A stretch of 43,266 nucleotides of DNA from a virus. A model generated the notes under the pieces. That model saw nothing but the letters and a program-made list of their open reading frames with translations, made no database searches and was not told where the DNA came from. The DNA lies in IMG/VR virus record IMGVR_UViG_3300028392_000113, positions 1 to 43,266 of that record; one strand, written 5' to 3'. Below are positions 6,405 to 29,001 of the stretch, in pieces. Numbering within the stretch: the first letter of the stretch is position 1; each line of letters opens with the position of its first letter. The translations under genes and the position numbers were made by a program.

Positions 6405-7730
6405 TCATCCCTGTTTTATTTGTCCCAATAGCTGTTTTAATTTATTACTCTGTACTTCAGCAGTGATCTTGCCCGACTCTTCTTGTGAATCATCTACTAC
6501 TTTGCTCTGAGTTTTAATACTGTTAAAAATATTAGGTTTATTATAAGCAGATACAGCACCAGCATCTTCTGGTAAATCAGTAATTCGCATGGTTTCGATG
6601 TTATATTCTAACTCAACTTTTTGCCCAGTACCGTTACTGGTACGTGTTTTCATACATTGTAACTGATATCTTCCTCGCTCTTTCATAGCGCGGCTAGTAA
6701 AGATGCCGAACACGTTATCAGCTGTGTTTATCTTACTGATTCCGCCAGATATATGACTATGATCGTATTCAATTTCTTCCACGCTGCTGCGATTTAACTG
6801 ACTAGCTGTAACCAATAATACATTAAGCTCTTTGGCTAAATTCCTCAATTCTTCACTGACATATTTGTCTTTGATAAACAAGTCATTTGGACTCACCTTA
6901 GTAGATACCGGCATCAATAAATCTAGATAATCCATCATCACAAAGTCAATCTTCATGCCTGTCTGTACTTGAACTTCTTTGATATAACTTCGCACATCAT
7001 TAATATTACTCTGTGCCGGCAATGCTTTCATACGATATTTGCCGGCTTTTTTACCAAACATCTTAACTTTTAATTCTGCGGTTTCCAGATCTTTTCTGAT
7101 GTCTTTTGTGGACATTCCGGATAGCATGGCATCAGTTCTTAATCCACATAATTCTTCACTAAGCTCTAAACTTATATAAACTCCGCTTAATCCTTGTTCT
7201 AGCCAGCTCAATGCTATATTCATCATCACGAGACTTTTACCCGAATTATGACTACATATACCATTAGTATAGTATCTATGATTATCATGATTAACCGAAA
7301 GATCATATACTTTAGTTTGTTTACTTTGCGGAAGAATATTGATTACAGTATCTACACCGTTTTCCGAAAGCAAAGTACTTCCAATCGGAATATCACGAGC
7401 ATAATGCCATTGCTGATCGGGAGATTGATATAAATGATCATGACTCGCAACAATCTTTTTACCTGAAGCAAACTCAAAGGTATATAAATCCTTTTTAACT
7501 TTTTCAATACAATCCAACACAGGAACCCAACCATCTGGACTAGATACAAGTATATTGTTTTCATGTACTTTTCCCATTAAGCTACCTATTGGTACCTGCT
7601 TAGGCTGTGTGAGATTGTACAATTTAACAACTTTTTCGGGCTTGCCTTTTGCGTATGTATCAATTTGAGCATAGGTATAAAACTGTTTTAAATAAGCAAG
7701 CTCAGTTGATAAATTTTCATAGTAGTTCAT
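6405..7730 (-). CDS. 41: Split intein C-fragment fused to C-terminal half of gp41 replicative helicase
   Basis: A 441-residue precursor. Residues 1-162 are an intein C-fragment: block B with H around VASHDHLYQS (94-103), block F at VYDLSVNHDNHRYYTNG, and the terminal block G ICSHN. Residue 163 is Ser, the +1 nucleophile, beginning SGKSLVMM, the second half of Walker A. The C-extein (279 residues) carries the DnaB/gp41 Walker B region FVMMDYLDLLM and the TASQLNRS sensor. Joined to the 183-residue N-extein at 8913-9461 it gives 462 residues; T4 gp41 has 475. Its ATG lies inside the 3' end of the endonuclease gene (14-bp overlap), so its translation is probably coupled to that gene. Without trans-splicing this half lacks a complete P-loop. 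Confidence 0.92.
   Translation of the reverse strand: MNYYENLSTELAYLKQFYTYAQIDTYAKGKPEKVVKLYNLTQPKQVPIGSLMGKVHENNILVSSPDGWVPVLDCIEKVKKDLYTFEFASGKKIVASHDHLYQSPDQQWHYARDIPIGSTLLSENGVDTVINILPQSKQTKVYDLSVNHDNHRYYTNGICSHNSGKSLVMMNIALSWLEQGLSGVYISLELSEELCGLRTDAMLSGMSTKDIRKDLETAELKVKMFGKKAGKYRMKALPAQSNINDVRSYIKEVQVQTGMKIDFVMMDYLDLLMPVSTKVSPNDLFIKDKYVSEELRNLAKELNVLLVTASQLNRSSVEEIEYDHSHISGGISKINTADNVFGIFTSRAMKERGRYQLQCMKTRTSNGTGQKVELEYNIETMRITDLPEDAGAVSAYNKPNIFNSIKTQSKVVDDSQEESGKITAEVQSNKLKQLLGQIKQG
7245..7730 (-). other. gp41 intein C-fragment (162 residues)
   Basis: The intein part of the precursor, ending in His-Asn before Ser+1. It is longer than the other three C-fragments: the first ~50 residues are an extra helical, Tyr-rich segment before the first clear intein strand. 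The block F/G end (NHRYYTNGICSHN) closely matches the UvsX C-fragment end (NHRYWGDGISSHN), so the two inteins are related. Confidence 0.88.
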
Positions 7731-8814
7731 TGATCGTAAACCTTTTGTTAAATAAATCGTCGCACCACATTACTACATACATTACGTCTGGATATTTTTC
7801 TAAAATATGATTTCGTTTTGCTAAATCATTTTTATAAGACTCGCCATATGTACCCAAATGTGTTAAAGTTCTTTGGCCTATTGTAATTGGAACATGTTCT
7901 AATTCATCTCGGTAATCTGAAAAGTTGATATGCCCTGGGCCGTGGAATTCAAAAATAAGTTTTAACTTTTTGTGTGTCTCGTCTTCGTATACTGCCAAAT
8001 CATATCGTCTATAACCAACATTGGAAATATTCTGCCAAAATTGTTCACTCGGAGCTCCAAATCTACAACATAATATATTAATATCATTTGCAGCAATAAA
8101 TCCGCGTATTGCTTGCATTTCCTTGCCATTTGGATTGAATGACATTGGCAAGGTAACCATGGCATGCTGGTATCTGTCTTTAGTTTTCCATGTTTCTTTA
8201 CGTTTATCAATAGATTGCTGATGTCGTAATGTGCCTTCTTCTATACCGTATCTATCAATGAAAAATGCAAGATCACGTTTTTGAAAATTAGAAACTATAT
8301 CAATTGCCTCGTCTTCTGAGTAGCCATTACGAATCCAATAGTCTTTCGACCTCACAGAATATAGCCCGGTTCCTTTACTCATTGCTCCAAATTTTCTACC
8401 TCTTTCTTGCTGTACTTTTTTAATCTTTTGAGTTATTTCCTCTTCGCTTAACCCAGAATCAGCCCAGCCTTCTCTAGTATTCTTTAACTGTTTTTTAAGT
8501 CGATCTACCATCGAGGTATGAGTTGTTTTCCAGTTGTCGCCGTACATTAATTTATGCCATTCAAGGCCATTGGCTTGACATTTAGACAAAGCCTCTCTCC
8601 TAGCTACCCAGTCTCCCAACGAATTAACTATCCAAATAGCTATATTTTTTCTCCATACCCCTGATCTATCTTCGTCGGGATATTCATTAAAAAACTCAGC
8701 TAACATCGCTTCTTCCTCGGCACTAGGAACATATCCAATTGGCAATATATTCCTTACTTGTTTTAATCCCATAAAAAAATCTACTGTACTTTTTTTGTTT
8801 CCATGCGGTTTCAT
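7717..8814 (-). CDS. Free-standing Vsr-like homing endonuclease inside fractured gp41
   Basis: A 365-residue protein between the two helicase halves. Residues 110-180 hold two copies of a helical repeat, the second SVRSKDYWIRNGYSEDEA; the same module occurs in the UvsW and UvsX endonucleases. The C-terminal third carries a Vsr/PD-(D/E)XK-like core: YDLAVYED (D272), then FEFHGPGHINF (E289, H291, H295), then a YVVMWCDD strand equivalent to WE.DY in the sisters. The core is more divergent than theirs (GPGH instead of GDYWH). Families of this kind (EDxHD/Vsr-like) accompany split inteins in metagenomic phage DNA. The likely role is cleavage of intein-free helicase alleles. AGGAG ribosome site; late-type box within a hairpin just upstream. 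Confidence 0.82.
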   Translation of the reverse strand: MKPHGNKKSTVDFFMGLKQVRNILPIGYVPSAEEEAMLAEFFNEYPDEDRSGVWRKNIAIWIVNSLGDWVARREALSKCQANGLEWHKLMYGDNWKTTHTSMVDRLKKQLKNTREGWADSGLSEEEITQKIKKVQQERGRKFGAMSKGTGLYSVRSKDYWIRNGYSEDEAIDIVSNFQKRDLAFFIDRYGIEEGTLRHQQSIDKRKETWKTKDRYQHAMVTLPMSFNPNGKEMQAIRGFIAANDINILCCRFGAPSEQFWQNISNVGYRRYDLAVYEDETHKKLKLIFEFHGPGHINFSDYRDELEHVPITIGQRTLTHLGTYGESYKNDLAKRNHILEKYPDVMYVVMWCDDLFNKRFTINELL

Positions 8815-8825
8815 CGTTCTCTCCT

Positions 8826-8849
8826 GTAAGCATATTTATTTATGCTTAC
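8826..8849 (-). promoter_or_regulatory. Hairpin containing a late-type promoter box before the gp41 endonuclease
   Basis: On the minus strand GTAAGCATA and TATGCTTAC form a 9-bp stem around a 6-nt loop. The left arm and loop contain CATAAATA (8837-8844), a T4 late-type box. The AGGAG ribosome site follows directly. In T4, I-TevI is controlled by a late promoter lying inside an mRNA hairpin, so early read-through and late transcripts would fold differently here too. It could also attenuate read-through from the helicase N-half. Confidence 0.6.
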
Positions 8850-8852
8850 GGT

Positions 8853-9461
8853 TTAGGAATAGGGTATAATTGGTAATTCAACGATAGTAACCATAGTATC
8901 AGCAGTTACACACCCACTGCCACCGGCAAACACGTTTAATTCGCCACGGCTAAATCCACCATATAGTATCTTATCGAGACTTGGCCATCCTGTGCTGACC
9001 TGTCCGCCGCTGTTAAAATATCTATTATTTCGTTCAGAAGGACTATCAAAATAGTCAGTGCCCATGTCTTTCTGTAGGCTTATCTGTACAGCATCTTTGA
9101 TGAGTTTTTCCACTGGGCCAAAATCACCTTTTTCCAATAGATCATACGATTTGAGGATAGCCCTCGATAATTCTTCACGTTTTGTAAATCCCTCAAATTC
9201 TTCCATGAACCATTCGATAGTTCCGTCTGGTAGTTCGGATAGCTTAGAGAGACTGACCCCTGTAGCCGCAGATACTTGTTCAAATATCGGCAATGCTCCA
9301 TGCTCATCATAATGTGTTTTAACAAATTTTGCTGCCGACTGTAAACCTTTGTCAAAGTTAGCGGGATTATAGATATTTTGTACCCGAACAAATGACTCAG
9401 CATCATTTAAGAGTATTTCCAAGAATAATTTCTGAACTTCAAGCCCGTAATCGTTTAACAA
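8853..9461 (-). CDS. 41: N-terminal half of gp41 replicative helicase fused to split intein N-fragment
   Basis: Begins LLNDYGLEVQKLFLE and includes VQNIYNPANFD, typical of the gp41 N-terminal domain, then the RecA-fold start FSRGELNVFAGGSG. At that point Walker A is broken and the frame continues CVTADTMVTIVELPIIPYS before TAA. Those 19 residues contain only intein block A with Cys1. The start is taken as TTG at 9461, 6 nt after an AAAGGA site; an upstream TTG at 9482 lacks such a site. The N-extein is 183 residues. The start overlaps the 3' end of the primase gene, as expected for the coupled gp61-gp41 primosome. Confidence 0.9.
   Translation of the reverse strand: MLNDYGLEVQKLFLEILLNDAESFVRVQNIYNPANFDKGLQSAAKFVKTHYDEHGALPIFEQVSAATGVSLSKLSELPDGTIEWFMEEFEGFTKREELSRAILKSYDLLEKGDFGPVEKLIKDAVQISLQKDMGTDYFDSPSERNNRYFNSGGQVSTGWPSLDKILYGGFSRGELNVFAGGSGCVTADTMVTIVELPIIPYS
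8856..8912 (-). other. gp41 intein N-fragment (19 residues)
   Basis: Cys1 follows GGSG of the interrupted P-loop. Block A (CVTADTMV) is canonical; nothing of the usual ~90-residue N-part follows, so this is an atypically split intein whose missing strands are supplied by the C-fragment. Confidence 0.85.
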
Positions 9462-10422
9462 GTTTTTTCCTTTGTATCTCAATTTTATATTTGTTTGTTT
9501 CTCTGGACTGCAATATAATTAGTATAGTTGCTAACCTGCCCATAGTAATTACCGCATCATTGACATCCTTTATTCCATTAGGCCAATCTGGCATACTTAC
9601 AGCCCAGCCCAATTCTATCGCTCGTTCTACTAATTTCATACCCGCCAGATCTTGATCGGGTATTACGGTTACTGTTTTTCCCAGATTTTTAATCAACTGT
9701 ATCTGTTTAGAATTTATATCATTATGTAGTACGGCTACAGCATCGATAGATAACGCATCGAAAATGCCTTCTACTACGAAAAGATGATGCCACGACTCTC
9801 GTTGCAGATCTGCCCCAAATACATAGCCCTGTTGCATATCTGAAATATATTTCGGGGTGCGAGTATCTAAAAATCTCGCGGTATTACCCACTAGCATGCC
9901 TTGATGTGTAAACGGTATCACGATGCGATTGGCCAATCTACCGTCGGCATCAGGCGATACCATATAAGGATAGGCAGTGTGATCTAGACTTCTAGATGAC
10001 AAATACTCTATATAAACAGTATGTCGGGAATTGGCGTCGTCAATTAATTCTAATCCAACTGGCAAATCTCGTTCTGCAAATTCCACATTAGGCACTGTTT
10101 GCTTAGTAGTTTCCAATAGGCCATGTATAGTTCGATGCCGTAAACTTTCCAGATTGATTTCTTCGATCAATTTAAAATCAACGCCCATCCATGTGAGGAA
10201 TTGTCGTGCTTTAAATGTGAGACTACGTCCTAGTACAAAACTGGCAGTATATCCGCAATTAAAACAAGCATAATACCAGCCTTCATCGGAGCTTTTGAAA
10301 CCTCCTCGCTGCTTACGGTCTTGATTTTCCCCGCGATGATGACAACAGACAGCGTTGAATGTAATCCAACCTGAACTATTACGTTTATGCTTAACGGGTA
10401 ATAAAGAAATTACATCAACCAT
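9439..10422 (-). CDS. 61: DNA primase (gp61-like)
   Basis: A 327-residue bacterial-type primase. The N-terminal zinc site uses CCHHRGE near residue 25 and CFNCGY near 54. The TOPRIM domain shows LFVVEGIFDALSID (Glu motif), VIPDQDLAGMKL (DxD motif) and DVNDAV. It makes RNA primers for lagging-strand synthesis and acts with the gp41 helicase, whose gene overlaps its 3' end. Length fits T4 gp61 (342). A sigma-70-like promoter lies immediately upstream with the -10 hexamer only a few bases from the ATG, and no ribosome site is present, so a leaderless message is possible. Confidence 0.9.
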   Translation of the reverse strand: MVDVISLLPVKHKRNSSGWITFNAVCCHHRGENQDRKQRGGFKSSDEGWYYACFNCGYTASFVLGRSLTFKARQFLTWMGVDFKLIEEINLESLRHRTIHGLLETTKQTVPNVEFAERDLPVGLELIDDANSRHTVYIEYLSSRSLDHTAYPYMVSPDADGRLANRIVIPFTHQGMLVGNTARFLDTRTPKYISDMQQGYVFGADLQRESWHHLFVVEGIFDALSIDAVAVLHNDINSKQIQLIKNLGKTVTVIPDQDLAGMKLVERAIELGWAVSMPDWPNGIKDVNDAVITMGRLATILIILQSRETNKYKIEIQRKKLVKRLRA

Positions 10423-11719: not shown

Positions 11720-12097
11720 ATGACCAACGAAATCTTCACTAAATTAACCGATAAATATCCCTTCATAACTCTGTGCTTGTATGCTAGTCAAGAATACGTT
11801 GGTATAATACAAAATCAAGATAATAGCATAACCACCATCTATGATTTTGGTAGCATAACCGACCTCGAAACTAAGAAAAAGTTTTTAGAATTAGCTAACA
11901 TATGGTGGTGGGAAAGCAACAGAACAGTACCCATCAATATATTTCTAAAACATGAGTGGCAGCCGTTTAGAACTTATCTGCGTACTTTCATGAATAAAGA
12001 CTTAGAAATTTTACATGGGCCAGTATGTAGTTTAAGTGAAATTGCTCGCAAGAAAAGTAAAAGAAAATCTATTACTTTAGTTAGACGTATCGAGTAA
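11720..12097 (+). CDS. Conserved phage protein on + strand, unknown function
   Basis: A 125-residue protein beginning MTNEIFTKLTDKYPFITLCLY. It has a beta-rich first half (YVGIIQNQDNSITTIYDFG), a Trp cluster (ANIWWWESNRTVPINIFL) and a basic C-terminus RKKSKRKSITLVRRIE. No enzyme motif is visible. The basic end suggests nucleic-acid or virion contact. It is transcribed opposite to its neighbours from a divergent promoter region and overlaps the convergent 12077-12646 gene by 21 bp. The coding signal is good, so it is not an antisense shadow: nothing occupies the opposite strand over most of its length. Confidence 0.65.
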   Translation: MTNEIFTKLTDKYPFITLCLYASQEYVGIIQNQDNSITTIYDFGSITDLETKKKFLELANIWWWESNRTVPINIFLKHEWQPFRTYLRTFMNKDLEILHGPVCSLSEIARKKSKRKSITLVRRIE

Positions 12098-12646
12098 GTT
12101 CATGTGTAGTGCTACTAACATTGAATAACTAAGCGAGTGCGCTTTCTTAAATACGAACCCCCGACTAGCATCACCATCCCAAACACTATCAAATATCTCA
12201 CTCCAAGGTTTATTCTGTAAATGTGCCTTTCCTGGACGTATAACAGCTATAAAAGCAGCCATGCGGGGTATCGAATCAGGGCGCATAGTCTTCAATAACT
12301 CTGTATAATTCCCTATATGTACTAACTGTTTAGCCCATTCGGCGTCTTCCCACAGCCTATTCCAAGTTGGCTCTTTTGCCAACATTTCTTCATAGTGATC
12401 TGGGTCTTTTATTAATTGATATACCGACATATTCAAAAGATCAATCTTAAAATAACCTCTAATCCCGGCATCTTCGTAGTCTATGGCAGCACAATTATTG
12501 ACAGGATCATAGGGAATATCCGTCACGTAAATACCGCTGTTATGTTTTCGAACTGGAGTTTGACCACGCAGTCTCGCAGGCGTATGTTTAATAAGATGTA
12601 AAACTTGTTCGCGATCTGCTAAATCTATATCGATATCTGCGCTCAT
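12077..12646 (-). CDS. Miniature DNA polymerase III alpha (DnaE)-like protein
   Basis: A 189-residue protein aligning by eye with scattered active-site blocks of bacterial DnaE. ADIDIDLADREQVL matches PDFDVDF...RDQVI (catalytic D401/D403; here D6/D8). RKHNSGIYV matches GKHAGGVVI. GYFKIDLLN matches LVKFDFLG (K553/D555; here K67/D69). LLKTMRPDSIPRMAAFIAV then IRPG matches the DnaE QPD...FRPG block. FKKAHSLSYSM matches FNKSHSAAYAL. All three metal-binding Asp are kept although the protein is one sixth of DnaE's length and lacks PHP, most finger and C-terminal regions. Whether it polymerises, binds DNA or acts as a decoy is unknown. The ATG at 12646 overlaps the upstream stop (TGATG); two upstream GTG codons are less likely. 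Confidence 0.72.
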   Translation of the reverse strand: MSADIDIDLADREQVLHLIKHTPARLRGQTPVRKHNSGIYVTDIPYDPVNNCAAIDYEDAGIRGYFKIDLLNMSVYQLIKDPDHYEEMLAKEPTWNRLWEDAEWAKQLVHIGNYTELLKTMRPDSIPRMAAFIAVIRPGKAHLQNKPWSEIFDSVWDGDASRGFVFKKAHSLSYSMLVALHMNLLDTSN

Positions 12647-13320
12647 CACCACCCTGCCTTTATTAAGATTTCCTGCGCTTCGGCTCGATTAGCCGGATCT
12701 TCGCGTAATTTTTTCGTCCATACATCAGCATCAATATACGGCCAGATGATGCTACGTTGTTCTTCATTTAATTCAGATAAAAATCTCTGCCCAGATTCAG
12801 ATGTATACAATACCCATGCGCTAATACGACCACTTATGATGGCGTGTATTATGGTATTGGGATTACCATATCTTAAAAAATCATGTGGGGGAGCATCTTT
12901 ATCTTCGGACCATGTAATAGAATATTCAATAGCCCGAGCTAACGCATCTTCCATGCGCTCTAATTTAAGATATTGAAGAAGATATTCTTCATAAAGTTTA
13001 TCACTACACCAATAGTCTAACTTTTTATTCTGTTTAAGTACCCACTCGGTAAATCTTGCAGGATTGATCACCTTGGTATCGACGCAATATCTTCCAAATT
13101 TTACAAATGCTTTATAATACGGACTTTCAGCAAAATCCTCATAAGTTTTTAACTTTGCTGAGCCTTGTGTAAGCTCATAGAATTTTAAATAAGCATTAAA
13201 ACCCATACGTACACCTACTTCATCTCGCTCAGTATGCCTACGTCTTGGCTCGCAACTATGTACAGTGAGACTAGACTCTTTTATAAAATCTCGTTTACAA
13301 TACTGACACGTATACTTCAT
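12646..13320 (-). CDS. Zinc-finger protein, unknown function
   Basis: A 224-residue protein with an N-terminal zinc finger CQYCKRDFIKESSLTVHSC (C5, C8, H and C ligands), followed by a helical domain (NAYLKFYELTQGSAKLKTYE). The region after residue 90 (RFTEWVLKQNKKLDYWCSDK) is rich in aromatic residues. It ends directly on the start of the DnaE-like gene (TGATG), so the two are translationally coupled and may act together on DNA. Zinc fingers of this kind are common in T4-like phage accessory proteins. The exact role is not recognised. Confidence 0.65.
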   Translation of the reverse strand: MKYTCQYCKRDFIKESSLTVHSCEPRRRHTERDEVGVRMGFNAYLKFYELTQGSAKLKTYEDFAESPYYKAFVKFGRYCVDTKVINPARFTEWVLKQNKKLDYWCSDKLYEEYLLQYLKLERMEDALARAIEYSITWSEDKDAPPHDFLRYGNPNTIIHAIISGRISAWVLYTSESGQRFLSELNEEQRSIIWPYIDADVWTKKLREDPANRAEAQEILIKAGW

Positions 13321-14503: not shown

Positions 14504-15925
14504 TTATTTCCACTCTAATTTCTCTTGAGTAAATGGATAGTTTGCATCTTTATAAAATGCCTTTCTCTTTTGTAGATGTCTTTTAGCGAAACGACATGTT
14601 GATGTAACATCCCAGATTTCAACATGATCTTTATCTTCTGCTTTGCGTATACCACGACCAATTGATTGTATGACGCGCACAAAGCTCTTGCCAGGTTCCA
14701 CCAATACCAAATTAAAAATTCTAGGAATGTTTATACCGACAGCAGCGACCCCGTAAGTTGCTACAATGATTTTGTCAGTACTGGTAGCAACTTCATTGTA
14801 TTCTTCATCACGTTGTGTTCCTTTGGTGGCACCGCTGACAAAGACTGCCCTCTCTCCTAGCATTTCAACTAATGCATGCCCTGCTGCTACTCTATCTACT
14901 AAGACTAAGGTATTTCCTGTCGCATTTACTTTTGTTACCAAATCTGCAATAACCTTAAGTCTATCCGTGTCTTCGAGTAGAAATTTTAATTCATTTTGAT
15001 ATGTGGGAAAATCAGCATGATCTACTAATTGTACGATGTTTACGTGACACTGTGCTAATACACCTCGATCTTGTAATTCGCTAGCAGATAGTCGATTAAT
15101 AACTGGCCCAAGACTTATATTCAGTGCCTGTGCTTCGGAAATTTCTTTAGGCACTGTGCCTGTTAAGCCCCATCGAATTGGTATTTTAGACATCACACCA
15201 GTTAAGAGTGTCTTTAACGCATCAGCTTTAGCCATATGTACTTCATCAACCATCACACAAACAACATCTTCTAAAAAATCTTGTATAGTATAGTCACCAA
15301 CAGCATTTTTAGTATTTTTCATTAAAATATTAAGGCTTTGCCAAGTACATATGGTATGTGTTTTACCAAACTCTTTTCTATCACCAAAAAATACGCCTAC
15401 ATCTAACCCCAATCCGCGATAATCCTTTTCAGTTTGTGTAACCAGAGATTTGTTTGGGACAATCACTATAGTGCGTCCGTGCGCTTCGCATCGCTGACTT
15501 AATGCCGCGGTCATGATGGTATTATGATGTATCAGTCCGTTGGCATCATAATATAAATGCGGAGCATCAATCCCAACATCAAAACAATCTTCGTCAACTT
15601 CGTTAGTTATTTTTGTTATGGCAACGCTTCCCAACAAATGATCTACAGTAGACCCAACATCTAGATATTTTACAAAAATATCATTATCGTTTTGACGCAA
15701 TATATGATTCTTGGCAACTTTAATAGAATACCCGTTATTAAAATGTAGTTTGACCATTGGTAAATTACATTTTTTAATAAACCAATTAACTTTTGCTTTT
15801 TTATCTAAAGCAGGGACATATATATCTAAATCAGAGGTAGAGATTTCTACATTATCGTCTAACTTAGTGTTGGTAAACTCTTCAATATATTCTGCTAATT
15901 TTCCAATTGATAAATCTAATATCAC
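14504..15925 (-). CDS. uvsW: Split intein C-fragment fused to C-terminal half of UvsW helicase
   Basis: A 473-residue precursor. Residues 1-135 are an intein C-fragment with block B at VAKNHIL, block F at CFDVGIDAPHLYYDANG and the end LIHHN. The +1 residue is Thr, the hydroxyl residue completing Walker A (GAGK|T). The 338-residue C-extein carries superfamily 2 helicase motifs: VDEVHM (DEVH box), GLTGTVPK and QSIGRGIRK (motif VI). Spliced length is 486; T4 UvsW has 503. UvsW unwinds branched DNA and R-loops. The start is GTG at 15925, overlapping the endonuclease stop as GTGA; no other start exists near the N-terminus, so translation is coupled. Confidence 0.9.
   Translation of the reverse strand: MILDLSIGKLAEYIEEFTNTKLDDNVEISTSDLDIYVPALDKKAKVNWFIKKCNLPMVKLHFNNGYSIKVAKNHILRQNDNDIFVKYLDVGSTVDHLLGSVAITKITNEVDEDCFDVGIDAPHLYYDANGLIHHNTIMTAALSQRCEAHGRTIVIVPNKSLVTQTEKDYRGLGLDVGVFFGDRKEFGKTHTICTWQSLNILMKNTKNAVGDYTIQDFLEDVVCVMVDEVHMAKADALKTLLTGVMSKIPIRWGLTGTVPKEISEAQALNISLGPVINRLSASELQDRGVLAQCHVNIVQLVDHADFPTYQNELKFLLEDTDRLKVIADLVTKVNATGNTLVLVDRVAAGHALVEMLGERAVFVSGATKGTQRDEEYNEVATSTDKIIVATYGVAAVGINIPRIFNLVLVEPGKSFVRVIQSIGRGIRKAEDKDHVEIWDVTSTCRFAKRHLQKRKAFYKDANYPFTQEKLEWK
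15521..15925 (-). other. UvsW intein C-fragment (135 residues)
   Basis: Ends in His-His-Asn before Thr+1. Block B has the A-x-N-H form (VAKNH) also seen in the UvsX intein. The first residues (LSIGKLAEYIEEF) look like the strand-helix that usually follows block A, some of which is also present in the 41-residue N-fragment. Confidence 0.85.
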
Positions 15926-16929
15926 TTAATAAAATCCTTACATTGTTGTATAATTGCAGCGGGGTCGTTAATGTAGTCATTCTCCCAAATTATCAGTACA
16001 CTATATCCATTATTTTTCAAATCTTGTATTTTACGTTGATCGTGATCCCAGACATCTTTAACTTTCTTTTTCCGTATTATGTCTTCGGGTTTGTAAATTT
16101 TAGGATTTCCATGCCAATAATCGCCATAGTATTCTATAATTTTGTTATTATGCAAATAATCAACCCGATGCACTTTTTGTTTTCCGCGTATTGTTTTTTC
16201 ATTAGGGCCATACAATCCAACTTCTAAATGTTCAAATAATTCTTGAGATTTTTTACTTCTGTTAGCTGTCATAGCTTTATTACCTGGAGCATTTAGCCAT
16301 TGTTCGATGCGCTTTTTAAATAATTCTTCCCCGGCAGATCCGTACTTGTTGATATAAAATTTTAATCCATTTGTAGTTTGTACTAGTTTAATTTTAGATT
16401 CAGACTCTTCGAAAGTATATCCCTTTTTCATCCAATATTCAATCGTTCTAACTGAATAACCACGAACTCCTTTCTTACTAACAGGAGATTTTGCTGAGCG
16501 TTCTTTTTGTATGCTAGATACCTTTTCCTTCGCTTGCTCTATGGTATATCCTTTATCACACCAATATTCTATAGTATTACTAAGTCCTTTACATTTTTCT
16601 CGATTAACTGATTGTATTGCCTTAGTTGCTTGATCATCAGTTAATATACAATTTAATTTATCTTTTGTCATTAAATGAGTGCCATCGTTCGCGCAATCAC
16701 AATTGGTACAAGCTATAAAATTTCCTTTATACATAGTGAGATTTAATCTAGTTCCACATTTCAGACAATTTCTAGTTGCGATTTTGAACTCAGATCGCAT
16801 AAAATAACGACTACTATAAACAGGTTCATTTATATAGTCTATTAAATCCCACTTGCTAATACCGTTAAGGGTACACAATCTTAACCAACTTTTCTTTTCA
16901 TAATTTTCTATTATTTGTTGTAACGTCAT
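15922..16929 (-). CDS. Free-standing Vsr-like homing endonuclease inside fractured uvsW
   Basis: A 335-residue protein. A zinc ribbon CLKCG...CTNCDC lies at about residues 54-78. Two helical repeats follow: TIEYWCDKGYTIEQAKEKV and TIEYWMKKGYTFEESESKI. Next comes the catalytic core HRVDYLHNNKIIEYYGDYWH, with GNP following, which resembles the Vsr core (D...F.DG.FWHG), then WDHDQRKIQDLK and VLIIWENDY. It is the most canonical of the three related enzymes here. Its ATG lies inside the intein N-fragment coding sequence of uvsW (32-bp overlap), and its stop overlaps the start of the C-half. The likely target is the P-loop region of intein-less uvsW. Confidence 0.83.
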   Translation of the reverse strand: MTLQQIIENYEKKSWLRLCTLNGISKWDLIDYINEPVYSSRYFMRSEFKIATRNCLKCGTRLNLTMYKGNFIACTNCDCANDGTHLMTKDKLNCILTDDQATKAIQSVNREKCKGLSNTIEYWCDKGYTIEQAKEKVSSIQKERSAKSPVSKKGVRGYSVRTIEYWMKKGYTFEESESKIKLVQTTNGLKFYINKYGSAGEELFKKRIEQWLNAPGNKAMTANRSKKSQELFEHLEVGLYGPNEKTIRGKQKVHRVDYLHNNKIIEYYGDYWHGNPKIYKPEDIIRKKKVKDVWDHDQRKIQDLKNNGYSVLIIWENDYINDPAAIIQQCKDFIK

Positions 16930-17467
16930 TTCCCTGCCCCTGTTGTAACTTATTTACTATAAATTTACCAAAAGGAGTATTTTCATCTATATCTATAGAT
17001 AATAACGTATCACCTGACAAACATTTACCAGCCCCAGTTGCTACCTCCTGTACACACTGAGGATTAGACAAAAAATTATTGATGATGTCTACTTGGTAGT
17101 CACGAAGAATGATTGGCTTACCTGCTGCGGGATGCCCTTCGCCCCAATTAAGGTGATTAAATGTTGACTCAGTCACCTTAGTAAATTCATAAACTGTAGA
17201 ATAATCACGCTGATCATCTAAATCGATATCATAATTAAATTTGTCTAAGATAGGTACGATATCAGGGAGTAAATTTAAGAAAGTACTGCCGCCTAATTGA
17301 AAAAATGAGACTTTTCCGTCCCATCGTCCCAATCTCACGGCGGGCAGATATCTCGCCCCCGGAACATCATATTTGAATGCGTTTACAAGAGCACGTCGGG
17401 CATCGGGTTCTAGCCCAACTAATTTGCAATTGACTTCGTCTTTGATTTCTATTATACACTTTTTCAT
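16898..17467 (-). CDS. uvsW: N-terminal half of UvsW helicase fused to split intein N-fragment
   Basis: Begins MKKCIIEIKDEVNCKLVG. It includes the N-terminal UvsW domain (RLGRWDGKVSFFQ), the RDYQVDII Q-motif region and the start of motif I, QEVATGAGK. There the frame enters intein block A (CLSGDTLLSI) and continues 41 residues to the stop. The N-extein is 148 residues. The ATG is preceded by the terminator of the AAA ATPase gene and a TTGACT element that could be part of a promoter, though no good -10 box is seen at the right distance. Confidence 0.9.
   Translation of the reverse strand: MKKCIIEIKDEVNCKLVGLEPDARRALVNAFKYDVPGARYLPAVRLGRWDGKVSFFQLGGSTFLNLLPDIVPILDKFNYDIDLDDQRDYSTVYEFTKVTESTFNHLNWGEGHPAAGKPIILRDYQVDIINNFLSNPQCVQEVATGAGKCLSGDTLLSIDIDENTPFGKFIVNKLQQGQGNDVTTNNRKL
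16901..17023 (-). other. UvsW intein N-fragment (41 residues)
   Basis: Cys1 follows GAGK of Walker A. Block A is CLSGDTLL. It is the longest of the four N-fragments; its last ~10 residues are encoded in sequence that also encodes the endonuclease start in another frame, so this tail may be a by-product of the overlap. Confidence 0.82.
16951..16958 (-). promoter_or_regulatory. Weak late-type box before uvsW endonuclease
   Basis: Minus-strand AGTAAATA, 22 bp upstream of the endonuclease ATG and within the intein N-fragment coding sequence. It is a degenerate match, noted because the other three endonuclease genes have a better box in the same place. Confidence 0.25.
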
Positions 17468-19965: not shown

Positions 19966-21219
19966 TTATTCTGCAGCATCGATACCATCAACATCAGCTT
20001 CGTCGACAGGGACACTAACTTGAGTTTTTTGAGAAAACTCTTGCATTACTAGATCAAAAATGCCGTTTTCGTTACGGTTCCATTCTTTGCGGAAATACTT
20101 ATGTATCTCACCATTCAAATCAACATAGGTATAACGATTGCCATCTTTAGCGATGAGATTTTTCTTTTCCAGTAGATCAAACATACCTGAATAAGGACTC
20201 ATCCCAGTATCGTAAGGAATACGCACTTCAATGTCTTCAAAAGGTTTGGCATATCGTGTTTTCATTATCTTACAACCTGCGCGAATGCCATTTACTGTGG
20301 AAGTTTTATTGCCATCTTCATCTTCCTTGAGCTTGAGTTTTTTCATCGCTACTACAATACTACTAGCATATACGAAACCTTGCCCACCACTGATATTGGG
20401 ATCTGGATTATAAGGATCTTGGCTAGCATACGTGTGATTAGTCGCAACCAACCCTACATTGTAACTACCAAACATATTAACACAATTACGTACCAATGCT
20501 GTCAATGCTTTGGGTTTACGCCCCATGTCACCTTTCATATCACCACTATCAAACTGATTGACATCGGTGGGAGTAAGTAGCATGCCTAGACTATCGATAA
20601 CAAACAATATCTTGGGACGTTCGCCTTCTGCTAATGTCTTATAATCTGACATAAAAGCAGAAATAGTTTTTGCTACATCGTCGATCATAGCCATACTTAA
20701 TTTAAGCAATTTACTTTCACTAGTATCCACGCCTAGCGCATGTAACCAAGTTTCATCAAGAGCATTTTCTGTGTCGATTAGAACTACGTAAATGCCCTGC
20801 TCTTGAGCATTTTTAACGATATTTCCTGCGCAAATATAACTTTTGCCGCTATTGTGACTAGAAATTCCATCTCCCCAATATCTATGATTTGGATGTAAAA
20901 TTTCAAAGTCATAACACTCTTCATTTTTAGATGATTTAATATCTAATACTGGTTCAGCACCAGACTCAGTTATAATCACATCACCGACCGAAAGTTCTAC
21001 AGCCAAAACCCACTTTCCATCTTCTAGTTGGATCATATGATTTTCGGCACAAGTAGTAGAATGGGATTTAGTCGTTACTAATACCATTGGCAAAGATCCT
21101 TTATCAAACCATTGCCCAATAGGTTGATAGCCGTCCGGAGTATCCAATTCGATATTGTACAATCCAGAATCATACAAAATTTTAAGCTCGCCTACACTTA
21201 TTTGTTTTTCTTCAATCAT
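19966..21219 (-). CDS. uvsX: Split intein C-fragment fused to C-terminal half of UvsX recombinase
   Basis: A 417-residue precursor. Residues 1-123 are an intein C-fragment: block B at CAENHMIQL, block F at CYDFEILHPNHRYWGDG, the end ISSHN, then Ser+1 in SGKSYICAG. The 294-residue C-extein is the RecA-type core: YVVLIDTENALDETW, ILFVIDSLGMLLTP (Walker B), VGLVATNHTY and NISGGQGFVYAS (loop 2), with an acidic tail DEADVDGIDAAE. Spliced length is 359; T4 UvsX has 391. UvsX performs strand exchange in recombination-dependent replication. The ATG overlaps the endonuclease stop by 8 bp. Confidence 0.93.
   Translation of the reverse strand: MIEEKQISVGELKILYDSGLYNIELDTPDGYQPIGQWFDKGSLPMVLVTTKSHSTTCAENHMIQLEDGKWVLAVELSVGDVIITESGAEPVLDIKSSKNEECYDFEILHPNHRYWGDGISSHNSGKSYICAGNIVKNAQEQGIYVVLIDTENALDETWLHALGVDTSESKLLKLSMAMIDDVAKTISAFMSDYKTLAEGERPKILFVIDSLGMLLTPTDVNQFDSGDMKGDMGRKPKALTALVRNCVNMFGSYNVGLVATNHTYASQDPYNPDPNISGGQGFVYASSIVVAMKKLKLKEDEDGNKTSTVNGIRAGCKIMKTRYAKPFEDIEVRIPYDTGMSPYSGMFDLLEKKNLIAKDGNRYTYVDLNGEIHKYFRKEWNRNENGIFDLVMQEFSQKTQVSVPVDEADVDGIDAAE
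20851..21219 (-). other. UvsX intein C-fragment (123 residues)
   Basis: Ends His-Asn before Ser+1. Together with the 15-residue N-fragment this makes a mini-intein of 138 residues with no internal endonuclease, a compact and typical splicing-domain size. Confidence 0.88.
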
Positions 21220-22348
21220 TTGATTTTCCTAATATATTATCCGCTAAATTGTTTATAACCATAGTTGGATTACGTCTATAGTCACTTTCCCAAACTACTA
21301 TCAATTGCCTTACATTTTTTGACTTTTTAATTTTATCTACCCTAAAATTGTCAGTATTCCATTTTTCAGTCGACGAATACCCAAACATAGTAAAATCAGC
21401 TTCATACAGAAGTGGGTTTCTGTGAAAGAAATCGCCGTAAAATTCTATAACTGTACCAGACTCTTTATGGAAGAAATCTACTCGATATCCGTATATTAGA
21501 TACTCGTAATTTTTAGTCTGATAGTATGTTGTACCTTGAATTTTTGAATCTAACTTAGTAAATAAATCTTGCGATATAATCGACCAGGTTTGATTAGGTT
21601 TGGCTCGCATTCTGTCACGATATTCTTGATTTTTCGCTAAAGCGTCTTCTAAAGTATTACCTCGGGCTATGAATCCGCTTACGCTATGAGATTTTTTCTT
21701 GTTGATCAAATCTTTTTCTTTTTCTGTCTTACTATTTAAGGTACTAAGCCATTGCTTTATTCGAACATCATATCTTGCTCTACCTTCCGCTTCGCCATAT
21801 TTCTTCACATAAAAGTCTAACCCATTCGTAGATTGAATTTCCTTAACTTTTTCTTTAGCCTGACTCTCAGTTAATCCCCGATTAATCCAAAAACTTAAAG
21901 ACCTGCAAGAATATATACTAACGCCTCTTGTTTTTTCGGCAGAAATATTGCTTCGTTTAGCTTGAATGTGCGATACTTGTTTTTCAGCCTCTTCTTTAGT
22001 ATATCCAAGATTTATCCAATAACTATCAATGTTCTTAAAGTGTGCTGTTCGCTTTCTATTCTGAAGATCTACTATGGATTGAAAATTCCGCTTGCCATAT
22101 CTTATCAATTGAGTATAATTGCTTGTTCCGTTTATTCCTTTTAGTCTCCGCAACCTTCCTTCATAATTGTTGAGATCGTAAAGTACGAAATAGGCTATTG
22201 TAGCATGCATATTTTCAAGTGCCTTACATGTTGATTTTGCAAATAATTTATTCAATCTAATAACATGCTCATTAGTTAATGTTTTATCTTTTAAAATTTC
22301 TTTCACAGCTTTGCGTTTCAAAAATTTTTTTGCTTGTTCTACCAGCAT
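21212..22348 (-). CDS. Free-standing Vsr-like homing endonuclease inside fractured uvsX
   Basis: A 378-residue protein. It starts with a Lys-rich helical region, then helical repeats: NIDSYWINLGYTKEEAEKQV and SLSFWINRGLTESQAKEKV, then FYVKKYGEAEGRARYDVRIK, which has a direct counterpart in the uvsW enzyme. A third divergent repeat (SVSGFIARGNTLEDALAKNQ) follows. The catalytic core is YRVDFFHKESGTVIEFYGDF, then FHRNP, with the late strand LIVVWESDY. AAGGAT ribosome site 9 nt upstream. A perfect late box (TATAAATA) lies at 22376-22383 in the 65-bp gap after the uvsX 5' half. Likely cuts intein-less uvsX genes. Confidence 0.83.
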   Translation of the reverse strand: MLVEQAKKFLKRKAVKEILKDKTLTNEHVIRLNKLFAKSTCKALENMHATIAYFVLYDLNNYEGRLRRLKGINGTSNYTQLIRYGKRNFQSIVDLQNRKRTAHFKNIDSYWINLGYTKEEAEKQVSHIQAKRSNISAEKTRGVSIYSCRSLSFWINRGLTESQAKEKVKEIQSTNGLDFYVKKYGEAEGRARYDVRIKQWLSTLNSKTEKEKDLINKKKSHSVSGFIARGNTLEDALAKNQEYRDRMRAKPNQTWSIISQDLFTKLDSKIQGTTYYQTKNYEYLIYGYRVDFFHKESGTVIEFYGDFFHRNPLLYEADFTMFGYSSTEKWNTDNFRVDKIKKSKNVRQLIVVWESDYRRNPTMVINNLADNILGKSND

Positions 22349-26185: not shown

Positions 26186-27259
26186 TTAATACATAGAGGC
26201 TATAAATGGCAAAGGCGGAGTCATGGTCTCCCCGAAGTCACGCATCTGTGTATCCATCTCAGGGTGATAAGTTTGCAACAATACCATCATTCTAGTTACC
26301 AAGATAGTGGCCATCACCAAATCATCAGTTTGGCCAGGTTTGGCGGCATAGCTTAGTCCGTGTGCTACAAATGTCTTAAGTTCTGATATTAACGGTTTAC
26401 TGTTTAACTTCATCTTACCTGACTCTATTAGTGTCTTTAATTTAGCACAGGCTGTGAGTTTATTTTTAGGACTAGTGTTAAAACCTTTACGATATCTACC
26501 TGGCCCACGATGAGGATCAGATAAGAAATATCCTTTTATGTTTTCTTCTCCGTATTGATCTATGGAAATTAATGCCGCCTCTCCGATAGTATTATTTTCC
26601 ACACTATAATAAACACTTTGTTCATCACCCACAATATTGTATATGTACTGTACAATATCGGCCAATATTCTAACTTGTTCAGGAATAGTAGTGCGATTGT
26701 GTTTCCACTCGCCTATCTGCTCAGTCGAATTCGCTTCAAATATCTGTATAGCAGAAGGATCGCCACCTGTACCTAGACTAGGGTCTAATCCCACACAATA
26801 CATTTTTCCTTTCTCGGGAGTTTTATACCATCGCACCTGTGATGTTTTATGTGTGGGCTCCGTGCCTTCTAAATCGATTAATTTTGCCGGAGCGATCAAT
26901 GTTTCATCGGCTATAATAAATTCGCAGTTTGAAACTAAAATATTATTGGCAAAAAATCTATAATTATTTTTTACATTTAGTAAATCATATACTTGTTCTT
27001 TGTCAGCAAGTTTAATACTGACTACTCGTTGAATGCCTATTCTAGTGTGAATCTTCATGCCTGGTCTTAAATTTTTCACTGCTATTTTGTCAAGTTGCTC
27101 AGTGAATATGGCGTGATCAAGTGTTGCTCGAATATTACTAGATGACAGTTGTAATTCTGCTGTTTGTTGTATACCTTTTAGAGATAATCCGTCAAAATTA
27201 CTCCATCCAGTATCTGTTAAAACTTGTAACCCTAAATTATTTTTTAGAAATACGTCCAC
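26186..27259 (-). CDS. 17: Split intein C-fragment fused to C-terminal half of large terminase gp17
   Basis: A 357-residue precursor. Residues 1-111 are an intein C-fragment: block B RATLDHAIFT, block F VYDLLNVKNNYRFFANN, and an end ILVSN that lacks the usual penultimate His. Cys+1 begins CEFIIADETLIAP. The 246-residue C-extein has the RNase H-like nuclease domain of TerL: MYCVGLDPSLGTGGDPSAI, VYYSVENNTIGEAAL and GQTDDLVMATIL hold the acidic residues. Spliced gp17 would be 519 residues. The start is GTG at 27259, about 10 nt after an AAGGA site inside the endonuclease gene (23-bp overlap). Confidence 0.9.
   Translation of the reverse strand: MDVFLKNNLGLQVLTDTGWSNFDGLSLKGIQQTAELQLSSSNIRATLDHAIFTEQLDKIAVKNLRPGMKIHTRIGIQRVVSIKLADKEQVYDLLNVKNNYRFFANNILVSNCEFIIADETLIAPAKLIDLEGTEPTHKTSQVRWYKTPEKGKMYCVGLDPSLGTGGDPSAIQIFEANSTEQIGEWKHNRTTIPEQVRILADIVQYIYNIVGDEQSVYYSVENNTIGEAALISIDQYGEENIKGYFLSDPHRGPGRYRKGFNTSPKNKLTACAKLKTLIESGKMKLNSKPLISELKTFVAHGLSYAAKPGQTDDLVMATILVTRMMVLLQTYHPEMDTQMRDFGETMTPPLPFIASMY
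26927..27259 (-). other. Terminase intein C-fragment (111 residues)
   Basis: Ends Val-Ser-Asn before Cys+1. Penultimate His is replaced by Ser, a variation known in some inteins that still splice. Block B keeps T-x-x-H (TLDH). Confidence 0.85.
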
Positions 27260-28061
27260 GCACGAATCCTTCTGGCTGAGAATTTAATTTATATTGTCTA
27301 TTTACAGTGCCATTGTTAAACCACAATAATCCTTGCTTTGTACTTTTTCTAGGTTTTCGACCTTTGACAAATCCCTCTGGACATGTAAAACTATACTGCT
27401 CAATCTCTCCGTTATTAAACCAAGTTTTTCCAGTGGCTATTCCTGTACGACCTTTATTAGCATCACTAATTTTCTTGCAGCGTTCAGGATCCCTCAAATA
27501 ATCGTAGTAACCAGGAACAGATCGCGCAGATTCATAGGATTTCCTATCTGCGTCAGACCATTTAAATCCTTTTTTACGACCGCCTATACCTGGACGTTTA
27601 ATCCCTCTATTTGGAGCAGGTTTTCCAAACATTGGATTTTTTTCTCCCTTCTTAGATTCCGACAACCGAGCTGACGTTTCTTCGGTAACAGGAGGTACTA
27701 TTCTGCCAGTATTCATTTGAGAGACCCTAATTGCTATTTGTTCTCTTAACTTAGCATATACCTTGCTAGTTATTTTAATCGTACGCCCATCTTTATCGCG
27801 GGTGGTGGCTAAACGCCAAAAGGCGAATAGCATTTTAGTTTGATATATGCCTTCGGTACATTTAGTTAACAAATGATGACAAACATAATGTTCATTGGCA
27901 GTCAGCAGTACTAAATTTTCTTTGTTATTTGTGCCACCAAAAGATTTAGGAATAATATGATGATTTTCAAATCGAGTTTCATTTGTTTTTACTCGAGGTA
28001 AACTTTGTGCTTTTTTAATAATTGCTAGATATTTGTAATAATACTTATTATGTATAAACAT
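27237..28061 (-). CDS. Free-standing HNH homing endonuclease inside fractured terminase gene
   Basis: A 274-residue protein unrelated to the other three endonucleases. The HNH domain is near the N-terminus: RFENHHIIPKSFGG, NKENLVLLTANEHYVCHHLL (residues ~31-65). A NUMOD3-like DNA-binding motif follows (KKGEKNPMFGKPAPNRG), then two C-terminal repeats: TWFNNGEIEQYSFTCPEGFV with KGRKP after it, and LWFNNGTVNRQYKLNSQPEG. These modules are typical of phage HNH homing enzymes. The late box CATAAATA ends 5 bp before the ATG and no ribosome site is visible, so a very short leader is likely. Confidence 0.85.
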   Translation of the reverse strand: MFIHNKYYYKYLAIIKKAQSLPRVKTNETRFENHHIIPKSFGGTNNKENLVLLTANEHYVCHHLLTKCTEGIYQTKMLFAFWRLATTRDKDGRTIKITSKVYAKLREQIAIRVSQMNTGRIVPPVTEETSARLSESKKGEKNPMFGKPAPNRGIKRPGIGGRKKGFKWSDADRKSYESARSVPGYYDYLRDPERCKKISDANKGRTGIATGKTWFNNGEIEQYSFTCPEGFVKGRKPRKSTKQGLLWFNNGTVNRQYKLNSQPEGFVRGRISKK

Positions 28062-28066
28062 AAGGA

Positions 28067-28074
28067 TATTTATG
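28067..28074 (-). promoter_or_regulatory. T4-type late promoter box before terminase endonuclease
   Basis: Minus-strand CATAAATA in the 25-bp gap between the terminase 5' half and the HNH gene, 5 bp from its ATG. Confidence 0.5.
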
Positions 28075-28086
28075 TATTTGCCCAGT

Positions 28087-29001
28087 TTACAATCGTAACA
28101 TTTGTTCTAATTGATTAATTGATATACGTCTAATCTCACCAGTGGTAAACTTAATATCAACTAAAGAATTTCCAGCTAAACAACAAATTTCACGTAAAAA
28201 CCGATCTTCCCCGAGCTGTGCTTTCATATCTGCTGCCCAGGCGTCATCTCTGTCGGGGTGTTCGTTCCAGTAACTACGGTAAGGTCTAAATCCGTTTATT
28301 CCAACTTCTTGCGGATTGCCGTGGCTATCCTCCAGCTTGTTTGCGCCCTTCCATAATAGCGCGAATTGATCTTCATCGCTATTGGGAGTGCTTGTAATAA
28401 TAGCTTTACCACCAGTTGCTAATGTTGGTGCGATAGAAGTCCAGAATTCCGATGCGATTGTAGGTCGGACGAAGGCAAACTCGTCACAGTAAAGTAAAGA
28501 TATACTCATACCGCGACCAGTATTTTCAGTAGTGGTGGCAGATACTATGCGTGATCCATTTTCAAATTCTATCGAACCTTTATTGTAATTCGTTGCCCCG
28601 GCTCGTATATGATCAGGGCATAATTCATATGCATATCTTACGCGAGTCATAATTTCTTGTGCGCCATCAAATTTATGAGCTGCAATCAACACCGTGCTAT
28701 CAGGCACAAACATAGCATACCACAGTAAGTAGCCGGCTGCCGACGTACTTTTTCCCGACTGTCTGGGCATCATGGCAATAGAAAATCTATAATTGTGATA
28801 AGTGTCGATTAATTTTTTCTGATATTCAAAAGGTTGATACAGCATCTTACCCTGTGTAGAGTGCTGAATATAGAAAAAGTTGCTCATGAAGTACTGCGGC
28901 CCTGTGTCAGGATCAACACACAGGGCAAATTCAGTCAGCTGCTCTGCTGTCCAATTTTCTTTTTTGTATGGAGTTTTTGCTAGGCTCGAGGCATCAAACA
29001 T
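28087..29001 (-). CDS. 17: N-terminal half of large terminase gp17 fused to split intein N-fragment
   Basis: A 304-residue protein carrying the whole packaging ATPase: FEYQKKLIDTYHNYRFSIAM adenine-binding region, MMPRQSGKSTSAAGY (Walker A), SLLYCDEFAFV (Walker B) and AIITSTPNS (coupling motif). The N-extein of 273 residues ends DRFLREIC. It is followed by CLAGNSLVDIKFTTGEIRRI and 11 more residues to the stop. Alignment with T4 gp17 around the break places the junction after the first of the two Cys. Here the intein separates motor and nuclease domains instead of cutting the P-loop. Consensus late promoter 4 bp before the ATG. Confidence 0.92.
   Translation of the reverse strand: MFDASSLAKTPYKKENWTAEQLTEFALCVDPDTGPQYFMSNFFYIQHSTQGKMLYQPFEYQKKLIDTYHNYRFSIAMMPRQSGKSTSAAGYLLWYAMFVPDSTVLIAAHKFDGAQEIMTRVRYAYELCPDHIRAGATNYNKGSIEFENGSRIVSATTTENTGRGMSISLLYCDEFAFVRPTIASEFWTSIAPTLATGGKAIITSTPNSDEDQFALLWKGANKLEDSHGNPQEVGINGFRPYRSYWNEHPDRDDAWAADMKAQLGEDRFLREICCLAGNSLVDIKFTTGEIRRISINQLEQMLRL
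28090..28182 (-). other. Terminase intein N-fragment (31 residues)
   Basis: Block A CLAGNSLV with Cys1 at 28180-28182. A second Cys directly before it belongs to the N-extein by alignment with the T4 terminase, although the alternative junction one residue earlier cannot be fully excluded. Confidence 0.83.

What the first reader, a model, noticed from the sequence alone, without database searches (positions are those of the whole stretch)
12077..12646. A 189-residue DNA polymerase III alpha miniature
Five separate DnaE active-site blocks occur in the right order, including all three catalytic Asp (D6, D8, D69), the KHxxG block, the QPD...RPG block and the KxHSxxY block, in a protein one sixth of DnaE size. 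This is not a broken gene: it is compact, coupled to a zinc-finger gene and has intact motifs. It could be a minimal C-family nucleotidyltransferase, a primer-extending enzyme or a mimic of host Pol III.
Basis: partly seen in the sequence, partly recalled or inferred. Interest (0 to 1): 0.75.

Follow-up and report, generated by a model that had tools for sequence, protein, structure and literature searches.

The report
Half of a split mini DNA polymerase
This small phage gene encodes the metal-binding half of a miniature bacterial-type DNA polymerase whose other half is a separate gene far away in related giant phages; such a split enzyme was predicted in print in 2021, and I found no report of a laboratory test.

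Summary
It is a DnaE-derived protein (phrog_11778). A family profile finds DNA polymerase III alpha chains first in the PDB; the AlphaFold2 model (pLDDT 92) aligns over its whole length to E. coli DnaE 399-780. Catalytic Asps are invariant in 71 aligned sequences.

It is not a self-sufficient miniature. It lacks the first half of the palm with the GxGRGS motif. Relatives encode that part as a second ~170-aa protein ('A', phrog_11127), whose model aligns to DnaE 279-393 and which stops just before the Asp motif in 103 of 103 loci. All 11 tested records over 340 kb carry both halves. A tends to lie near a clamp-loader gene, B near helicase/primase genes. A family-B polymerase is also present in 16 of 20 relatives tested.

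Most likely A and B assemble, unligated, into a thumbless C-family polymerase assisting the family-B replicase. Iyer et al. 2021 (PMC7824862) already predicted such a split minimal Pol III alpha. Activity is untested.

The parts
12077..12646 (-). Fragment B: 189-aa C-terminal (metal-binding) half of a split minimal Pol III alpha, phrog_11778
12623..12637 (-). DIDID motif, residues 4-8: counterparts of E. coli DnaE D401, D403 (catalytic) and D405
   Evidence: coordinates computed from the ATG at 12646
12533..12547 (-). KHNSG block, residues 34-38: counterpart of GKHAGG (K510-H511) of E. coli DnaE
12440..12448 (-). KID, residues 67-69: counterparts of K553 and catalytic D555
12230..12283 (-). 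RPD...RPG block, residues 122-139; its two prolines are 15 residues apart, as in E. coli DnaE
12125..12148 (-). KKAHSLSY, residues 167-174: counterpart of NKSHSAAY (757-764)
12646..13320 (-). Conserved upstream neighbour, phrog_11058, with an apparent C2H2-like zinc finger (below Pfam cut-off); its stop overlaps the start of B by one base
11720..12097 (+). Conserved convergent neighbour of unknown function, phrog_11637; overlaps the 3' end of B by 21 bases
9439..10422 (-). Toprim primase, downstream in the same replication cluster
14504..17467 (-). UvsW-type helicase, apparently cut into two genes by a split intein with a nuclease-like ORF between, upstream in the cluster
   Evidence: UvsW_N and intein hits are below the Pfam cut-offs; helicase hits are above

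Best explanation
The gene encodes subunit B of a two-protein, minimal C-family (Pol III alpha type) polymerase. Subunit A (about 170 aa, encoded 11 kb to over 200 kb away in the genomes examined) gives the first half of the palm with the GxGRGS motif that binds the nucleotide triphosphate. Subunit B gives the second half, with the three metal-binding Asps, and a shortened finger region. A ends where B begins, so the halves are inferred to associate without covalent joining and rebuild one nucleotidyltransferase active site at their interface. Thumb, PHP, clamp-binding and C-terminal domains are missing. The enzyme is therefore inferred to be poorly processive alone and to act inside the phage replisome, beside the family-B replicase, for short synthesis such as primer extension, gap filling or lesion repair. 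Shown here: homology, complementarity of the halves, conservation, co-occurrence, genome context. Inferred: binding of A to B, catalysis, biological role.
For: B model: 13 C-family entries at Z 6.4-10.1, e.g. E. coli 2hnh 399-780 (Z 8.5, 185 residues, rmsd 4.3); first unrelated row Z 3.5. A model (from the 352,754-base record, pLDDT 87): 16 C-family entries at Z 7.7-11.9, e.g. E. coli 4jom 279-393 (Z 10.9, 97 residues, rmsd 2.6); first unrelated row Z 2.5. PDB profile searches give complementary ranges: A 321-392 of E. coli (9 of 9 hits DnaE, E 0.018-0.04); B 413-424, 567-664, 773-788 of 5lew. Pfam PF07733 hits A at E 1e-7 to 5e-12 (4 of 4). 103 of 103 A ORFs stop 35-44 residues after the motif. 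Invariant in the 71-sequence B alignment: D4 D6 D8 H35 G38 K67 D69 R137 P138 K140 H170 among others; in the 68-sequence A alignment: W139 G140 G142 R143 G144 S145 S146 among others. Co-occurrence: A in 13 of 16 B-bearing records; six of these were already known to hold A, and of the other ten it rang in seven, the misses being records of 148-222 kb; 11 of 11 of 340 kb or more have both. 57 of the 60 listed isolate records with B are among the 60 best A records. Purifying selection: median dN/dS 0.11 in 28 B pairs (0.01-0.19) and 0.11 in 44 A pairs (0.05-0.26). Context: a clamp-loader-like ORF in 60 of 103 A loci and 0 of 160 B loci by a crude motif test, annotated as clamp loader in GAP32 and Paride and AAA-ATPase in Phosso; B lies between a helicase and primase/replicative helicase.
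Against: No contact between A and B was tested; no two-chain prediction was possible. The window's record is a 43-kb fragment with no A and no family-B polymerase in it, so for this very phage the partner is inferred from relatives. The thumb is gone (26 residues against 105 between the D405 and K510 counterparts), and most of the finger segment between RPG and HS is gone (32 against 120), so DNA grip and dNTP selection would have to be done differently or by a partner. The first ~74 residues of A match no polymerase in the structure search. A DnaQ-like exonuclease is over the cut-off in only 5 of 12 records, so a mini alpha-epsilon core is not general. Foldseek E-values are modest (8e-4 for B, 0.045 for A). 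In Slicko01 the two neighbour proteins tested matched neither neighbour family. The conservation counts are biased: scan patterns contained the motifs.
Confidence: 0.8

Rival explanations
1. B alone is a self-sufficient miniature C-family nucleotidyltransferase or polymerase.
For: All three catalytic Asps, K67, the RPG and KxHSxxY blocks are in one chain with a confident predicted fold.
Against: The GxGRGS half of the palm is missing from B and is found as a separate, co-occurring gene that ends where B begins.
Confidence: 0.05
2. A+B form a nucleotidyltransferase, but not a template-directed DNA polymerase: for instance an end-adding or protein- or RNA-modifying enzyme.
For: Active-site residues are kept while the thumb and much of the fingers, which hold DNA, are lost.
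Against: The RPD...RPG block keeps its exact internal spacing (15 residues) and KxHSxxY is kept; both genes sit among replication genes.
Confidence: 0.1
3. A+B are a catalytically idle decoy or scaffold that mimics host Pol III alpha or regulates the phage family-B polymerase.
For: The phages have a family-B polymerase (16 of 20 relatives tested), so a second polymerase is not strictly needed.
Against: Invariant catalytic Asps and GxGRGS (pattern bias noted) are not expected of a decoy. The domains by which alpha contacts clamp, tau and epsilon are the missing ones (domain roles recalled).
Confidence: 0.04
4. A decaying relic of a horizontally acquired dnaE gene.
For: Small size compared with full DnaE; earlier authors called what appears to be the A half 'truncated' (PMC5259590, passages).
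Confidence: 0.01

Closest known systems
Split minimal DNA polymerase III alpha of group 2.2 jumbo phages (Iyer et al. 2021, PMC7824862, section 3.4.1 read in full)
   Different: Nothing essential. I did not see the figure or supplement, so which accessions they meant is inferred. Added here: residue-level boundary, models of both halves, conservation and co-occurrence counts, clamp-loader and helicase contexts, and a 141-kb phage (Slicko01) outside the jumbo size class.
Bacterial DnaE / PolC (C-family replicases)
   Same: Homologous palm, catalytic Asps, RPG and KxHSxxY blocks.
   Different: Full enzymes are single long chains (E. coli 1160 residues) with PHP, thumb, complete fingers and clamp-binding parts; here about 360 residues in two chains.
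Cyanobacterial split DnaE with trans-splicing intein (recalled)
   Same: DnaE encoded by two distant genes.
   Different: Different break point (recalled). No intein-like extension was seen: A stops within 44 residues of its motif in 103 of 103 loci, and at most 53 open residues precede the Asp motif of B in 159 of 160 loci, the last being a chance match in another gene. So no covalent joining is expected.
ASFV Pol X (recalled)
   Same: Precedent for a ~20-kDa polymerase with a Pol beta-type palm and lost domains.
   Different: Single chain, X family, different remaining domains.

Membership tests
Split minimal Pol III alpha of jumbo phages (Iyer et al. 2021) | Separate C-terminal Mg-binding subdomain protein | tested here: met
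   Window B:
Split minimal Pol III alpha of jumbo phages (Iyer et al. 2021) | Separate N-terminal NTP-binding subdomain protein from a distant gene | tested here: inconclusive
   Not in the 43-kb window; present in relatives: 13 of 16 records, 11 of 11 of 340 kb or more
Split minimal Pol III alpha of jumbo phages (Iyer et al. 2021) | Accompanies a family-B DNA polymerase | tested here: inconclusive
   None in the 43-kb fragment; relatives: 5 of 9 (misses are records of 62-149 kb) and 11 of 11
C-family DNA polymerase (DnaE/PolC) | Homologous Pol beta-like palm with three catalytic Asp | tested here: met
   Second part of the palm and the Asps in B:
C-family DNA polymerase (DnaE/PolC) | GxGRGS nucleotide-binding motif in the same chain | tested here: not met
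   Absent from B; carried by A
C-family DNA polymerase (DnaE/PolC) | Thumb domain between the DxD and KHxxG blocks | tested here: not met
   26 residues against 105 in E. coli
C-family DNA polymerase (DnaE/PolC) | Complete finger domain between RPG and KxHSxxY | tested here: not met
   32 residues against 120 in E. coli
C-family DNA polymerase (DnaE/PolC) | PHP domain | tested here: not met
   B starts at the DxD motif; A has only about 75 residues before the palm, and no Pfam PHP hit at E<=0.1 in 4 proteins
C-family DNA polymerase (DnaE/PolC) | Template-directed DNA synthesis | not testable with these tools
   needs biochemistry

The most novel reading that the evidence does not exclude
A and B form an active, thumbless C-family DNA polymerase of about 40 kDa whose active site is assembled in trans from two ~20-kDa proteins made from distant genes, working as a second, dedicated polymerase (priming hand-off, lagging-strand gap filling or repair) beside the family-B replicase in T4-related giant phages. 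The break may descend from a split-intein gene fracture of the kind apparently present in four other genes of this window, the intein having been lost once the halves could pair by themselves.
Probability: 0.45. Interest if true: 0.78.

Novelty: new member of a known kind. Interest (0 to 1): 0.5.

Why it matters
If active, this would be a very small C-family polymerase and a natural case of a polymerase active site shared between two separately encoded proteins. It would show how little of Pol III alpha is needed for nucleotide transfer and why T4-related giant phages keep a second polymerase. Many records list the halves as 'hypothetical' or 'putative membrane' proteins, so recognising the pair corrects annotations and makes a direct biochemical test simple.

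Tried and rejected
Single-sequence PDB search of B found nothing; Pfam gave only a chance NIPSNAP match (E 0.2); NCBIfam gave sub-threshold Pol III alpha matches (0.031 and 0.2). The window was searched for A and for a family-B polymerase without success; it is a fragment. A family-A polymerase was not found in the 9 records tested, some of them fragments. I looked for A and B close together: of 285 sequences three rang; in L240 and L273 no B-like ORF is listed and the B pattern falls within a clamp-loader-like ORF, and the third is Slicko01, about 11 kb apart. Fringe hits of A in other phages were single ORFs of 959-1241 residues holding both motifs, i.e. ordinary DnaE genes (L280, L281, L283, L284). 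Thomasclavelia phage TR-TP1 has an adjacent two-gene polymerase with an HNH gene between, a different arrangement not followed up. A general alpha-epsilon pairing was rejected: DnaQ-type exonuclease at E<=0.01 in 7 of 12, over the cut-off in 5 of 12. The search of predicted viral structures gave 10 matches to B at E<=0.001; those with names are DNA polymerases.

Biases: scans that supplied B and A used patterns containing the Asp motif or the GxGRGS motif, and the script patterns were written after seeing the families, so the 71-sequence, 68-sequence and 160 of 160 conservation counts lean towards conservation; the A stop position is not subject to this. Slicko01, found by tblastn from a match starting only at residue 35, also has the Asp motif. 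The B pattern also has a chance match in L143. The clamp-loader test is crude, on loci with unequal flanks. The dN/dS pairs share sequences and were limited to equal-length pairs with dS 0.1-1.0. Alignment A3 used the window protein plus 70 of 71 cluster representatives (the one left out, L002, is the same protein); A4 used 68 of 88 representatives, 20 being left out by hand, mostly odd lengths, doubtful starts or look-alikes. Of the 63 isolate records three were not listed; I did not check which they are.

Full report
What is there. The gene lies on the minus strand, start ATG at 12646, stop ending at 12077, 189 aa. The plus strand of the same stretch is not open in that frame. It belongs to phrog_11778, 'DNA polymerase' (E 2e-52). 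tblastn finds it in 63 of 50,697 phage records at E<=1e-3, 61 of them over at least 80% of the query, all under 60% identity. Of the 60 listed, 55 are giant phages of 284-490 kb (RaK2, 121Q, GAP32, PA5oct, Atu_ph07, SCTP-2 and others), three are short records of 86-110 kb, and two are 141-kb Alishewanella phages.

Is it DnaE-like? Yes. A profile of 71 sequences finds DNA polymerase III alpha subunits in the PDB (nine of the ten sequences at E<=1, best E 2e-4), with the blocks in DnaE order, although no single stretch is significant alone in those nine. The AlphaFold2 model has mean pLDDT 92 and aligns over residues 1-189 to E. coli DnaE 399-780 (2hnh: Z 8.5, 185 residues, rmsd 4.3); the 13 C-family entries have Z 6.4-10.1 and the best unrelated row 3.5. 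Catalytic counterparts are D4, D6 and D69 (E. coli D401, D403, D555); D8 matches D405. That D401, D403 and D555 are the catalytic ones is recalled from the literature. D4, D6, D8, H35, G38, K67, D69, R137, P138, K140 and H170 are among the columns invariant in the 71 sequences (the scan patterns bias this).

Why it is only half. In DnaE the palm begins more than 100 residues before the Asp motif and includes RGSGAG (362-367 in E. coli). B has none of this; the gene starts close to the Asp motif, and in 32 of 160 loci Met-Pro stands directly before its first Asp. Searching whole records for Pfam PF07733 rang a different small gene in 6 of 9 records, 5 over the cut-off; the three without are of 62-145 kb. 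That protein, A, is phrog_11127, ends ...WGVGRGSSVASY...EFLK/R in most sequences, and stops there. In 103 of 103 A loci the stop is 35-44 residues after the motif. Its model (pLDDT 87) aligns from about residue 75 on to DnaE 279-393 (4jom: Z 10.9, 97 residues, rmsd 2.6; 16 C-family entries at Z 7.7-11.9, best unrelated row 2.5). A and B therefore tile DnaE 279-393 and 399-780 with no overlap. What is lost is the thumb (105 residues reduced to 26), most of the fingers between RPG and HS (120 to 32), and the parts outside palm and fingers.

Do the halves go together? A profile of A rang in 13 of 16 records. Six of the 16 were already known to hold A; of the other ten it rang in seven. The three without are records of 148, 151 and 222 kb; all 11 of 340 kb or more have both, and so does the 141-kb Slicko01. 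In the other direction B rang in 8 of 12 records; of the seven chosen because they hold A it rang in three, all of 348 kb or more, and the four misses are 78-110 kb. Among isolates, 57 of the 60 listed B records are among the 60 best A rows; of the other three, one is a 109-kb record, one (Slicko01) has A by profile, and one was not tested.

Context. B sits in a conserved order, with varying numbers of genes between: helicase (UvsW-type), a protein of phrog_11058 (window, GAP32, Paride, Phosso; an apparent zinc finger in the window), B, a convergent gene of phrog_11637 (the same four), primase, replicative helicase. The two Slicko01 neighbours tested matched no family. A sits upstream of a clamp loader gene: annotated so in GAP32 and Paride, an AAA-ATPase in Phosso; by a crude motif test a clamp-loader-like ORF lies in 60 of 103 A loci and 0 of 160 B loci. 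A family-B polymerase rang in 5 of 9 records (misses 62-149 kb) and in 11 of 11 others; no family-A polymerase in the first 9. A DnaQ-type exonuclease was over the cut-off in 5 of 12. Both halves are under purifying selection (median dN/dS 0.11 in 28 B pairs and in 44 A pairs).

How it most likely works. The two ~20-kDa proteins pair and rebuild one Pol beta-type active site at their interface: A holds the incoming triphosphate, B the two metals and part of the fingers (assignment from DnaE/PolC, established knowledge). With no thumb or clamp-binding part it should be weakly processive, fitting short synthesis inside the phage replisome next to the family-B enzyme. Binding, catalysis and role are inferences.

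What is known. After reaching the split model from the sequences I found it in print: Iyer et al. 2021 (PMC7824862; section 3.4.1 read in full; other passages; [quoted passage not shown] In the passages I saw, earlier papers name one piece only: CBB_328, 172 aa, 'truncated' (PMC5259590) and Atu_ph07 gp316 (PMC6102473); that these are A is my inference (in the CBB record A is labelled DNA polymerase III alpha and B a putative membrane protein). PMC11348598 (passages) surveys phage PolC; the passages shown do not mention this form. My searches returned no experimental test among the listings and passages I saw; the library lacks most subscription papers. Novelty is therefore low for the idea, moderate for the documentation.

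Verdict. An intact, conserved and unusual gene, but of a known (predicted) kind; half an enzyme rather than a miniature whole. Interest 0.5.

Noticed in passing
6405-9482 (-): Replicative helicase (gp41/DnaB-like) apparently cut into two genes: the upstream half ends in an intein-like N-part, the downstream half begins with an intein-like C-part (sub-threshold HINT hit), with a separate ORF (7717-8814) between: resembles a 'fractured gene' with split intein (the Dassa 2009 title seen only in a reference list).
   Followed up: partly
14504-17467 (-): UvsW-type helicase apparently cut in the same way, with a nuclease-like ORF (15922-16929, weak REase_MTES_1575 hit) between the halves.
   Followed up: partly
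19966-22348 (-) and 26186-29001 (-): UvsX (RecA hit in the downstream half) and, by eye, the large terminase also look fractured by split inteins with an endonuclease-like ORF beside them, which would make four such genes in 43 kb.
   Followed up: no
11720-12097 (+): Small convergent gene overlapping the end of B, phrog_11637 of unknown function, at the same place in GAP32, Paride and Phosso; no Pfam hit at E<=0.001.
   Followed up: partly
L282 (Thomasclavelia phage TR-TP1), 4047-8672: A different two-gene polymerase with an HNH endonuclease gene between the parts; may be an intron or intein split.
   Followed up: no
L278, L279: Relatives of B (44-46% identical) in contigs binned as archaeal MAGs (Natrialbaceae, Pacearchaeota); probably phage contigs placed in the wrong bin.
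   Followed up: no
L114 (Slicko01), 524-1036 and 11875-12486: A diverged A/B pair about 11 kb apart in a 141-kb phage, the smallest complete genome in which I found both halves; it too has a family-B polymerase.
   Followed up: partly
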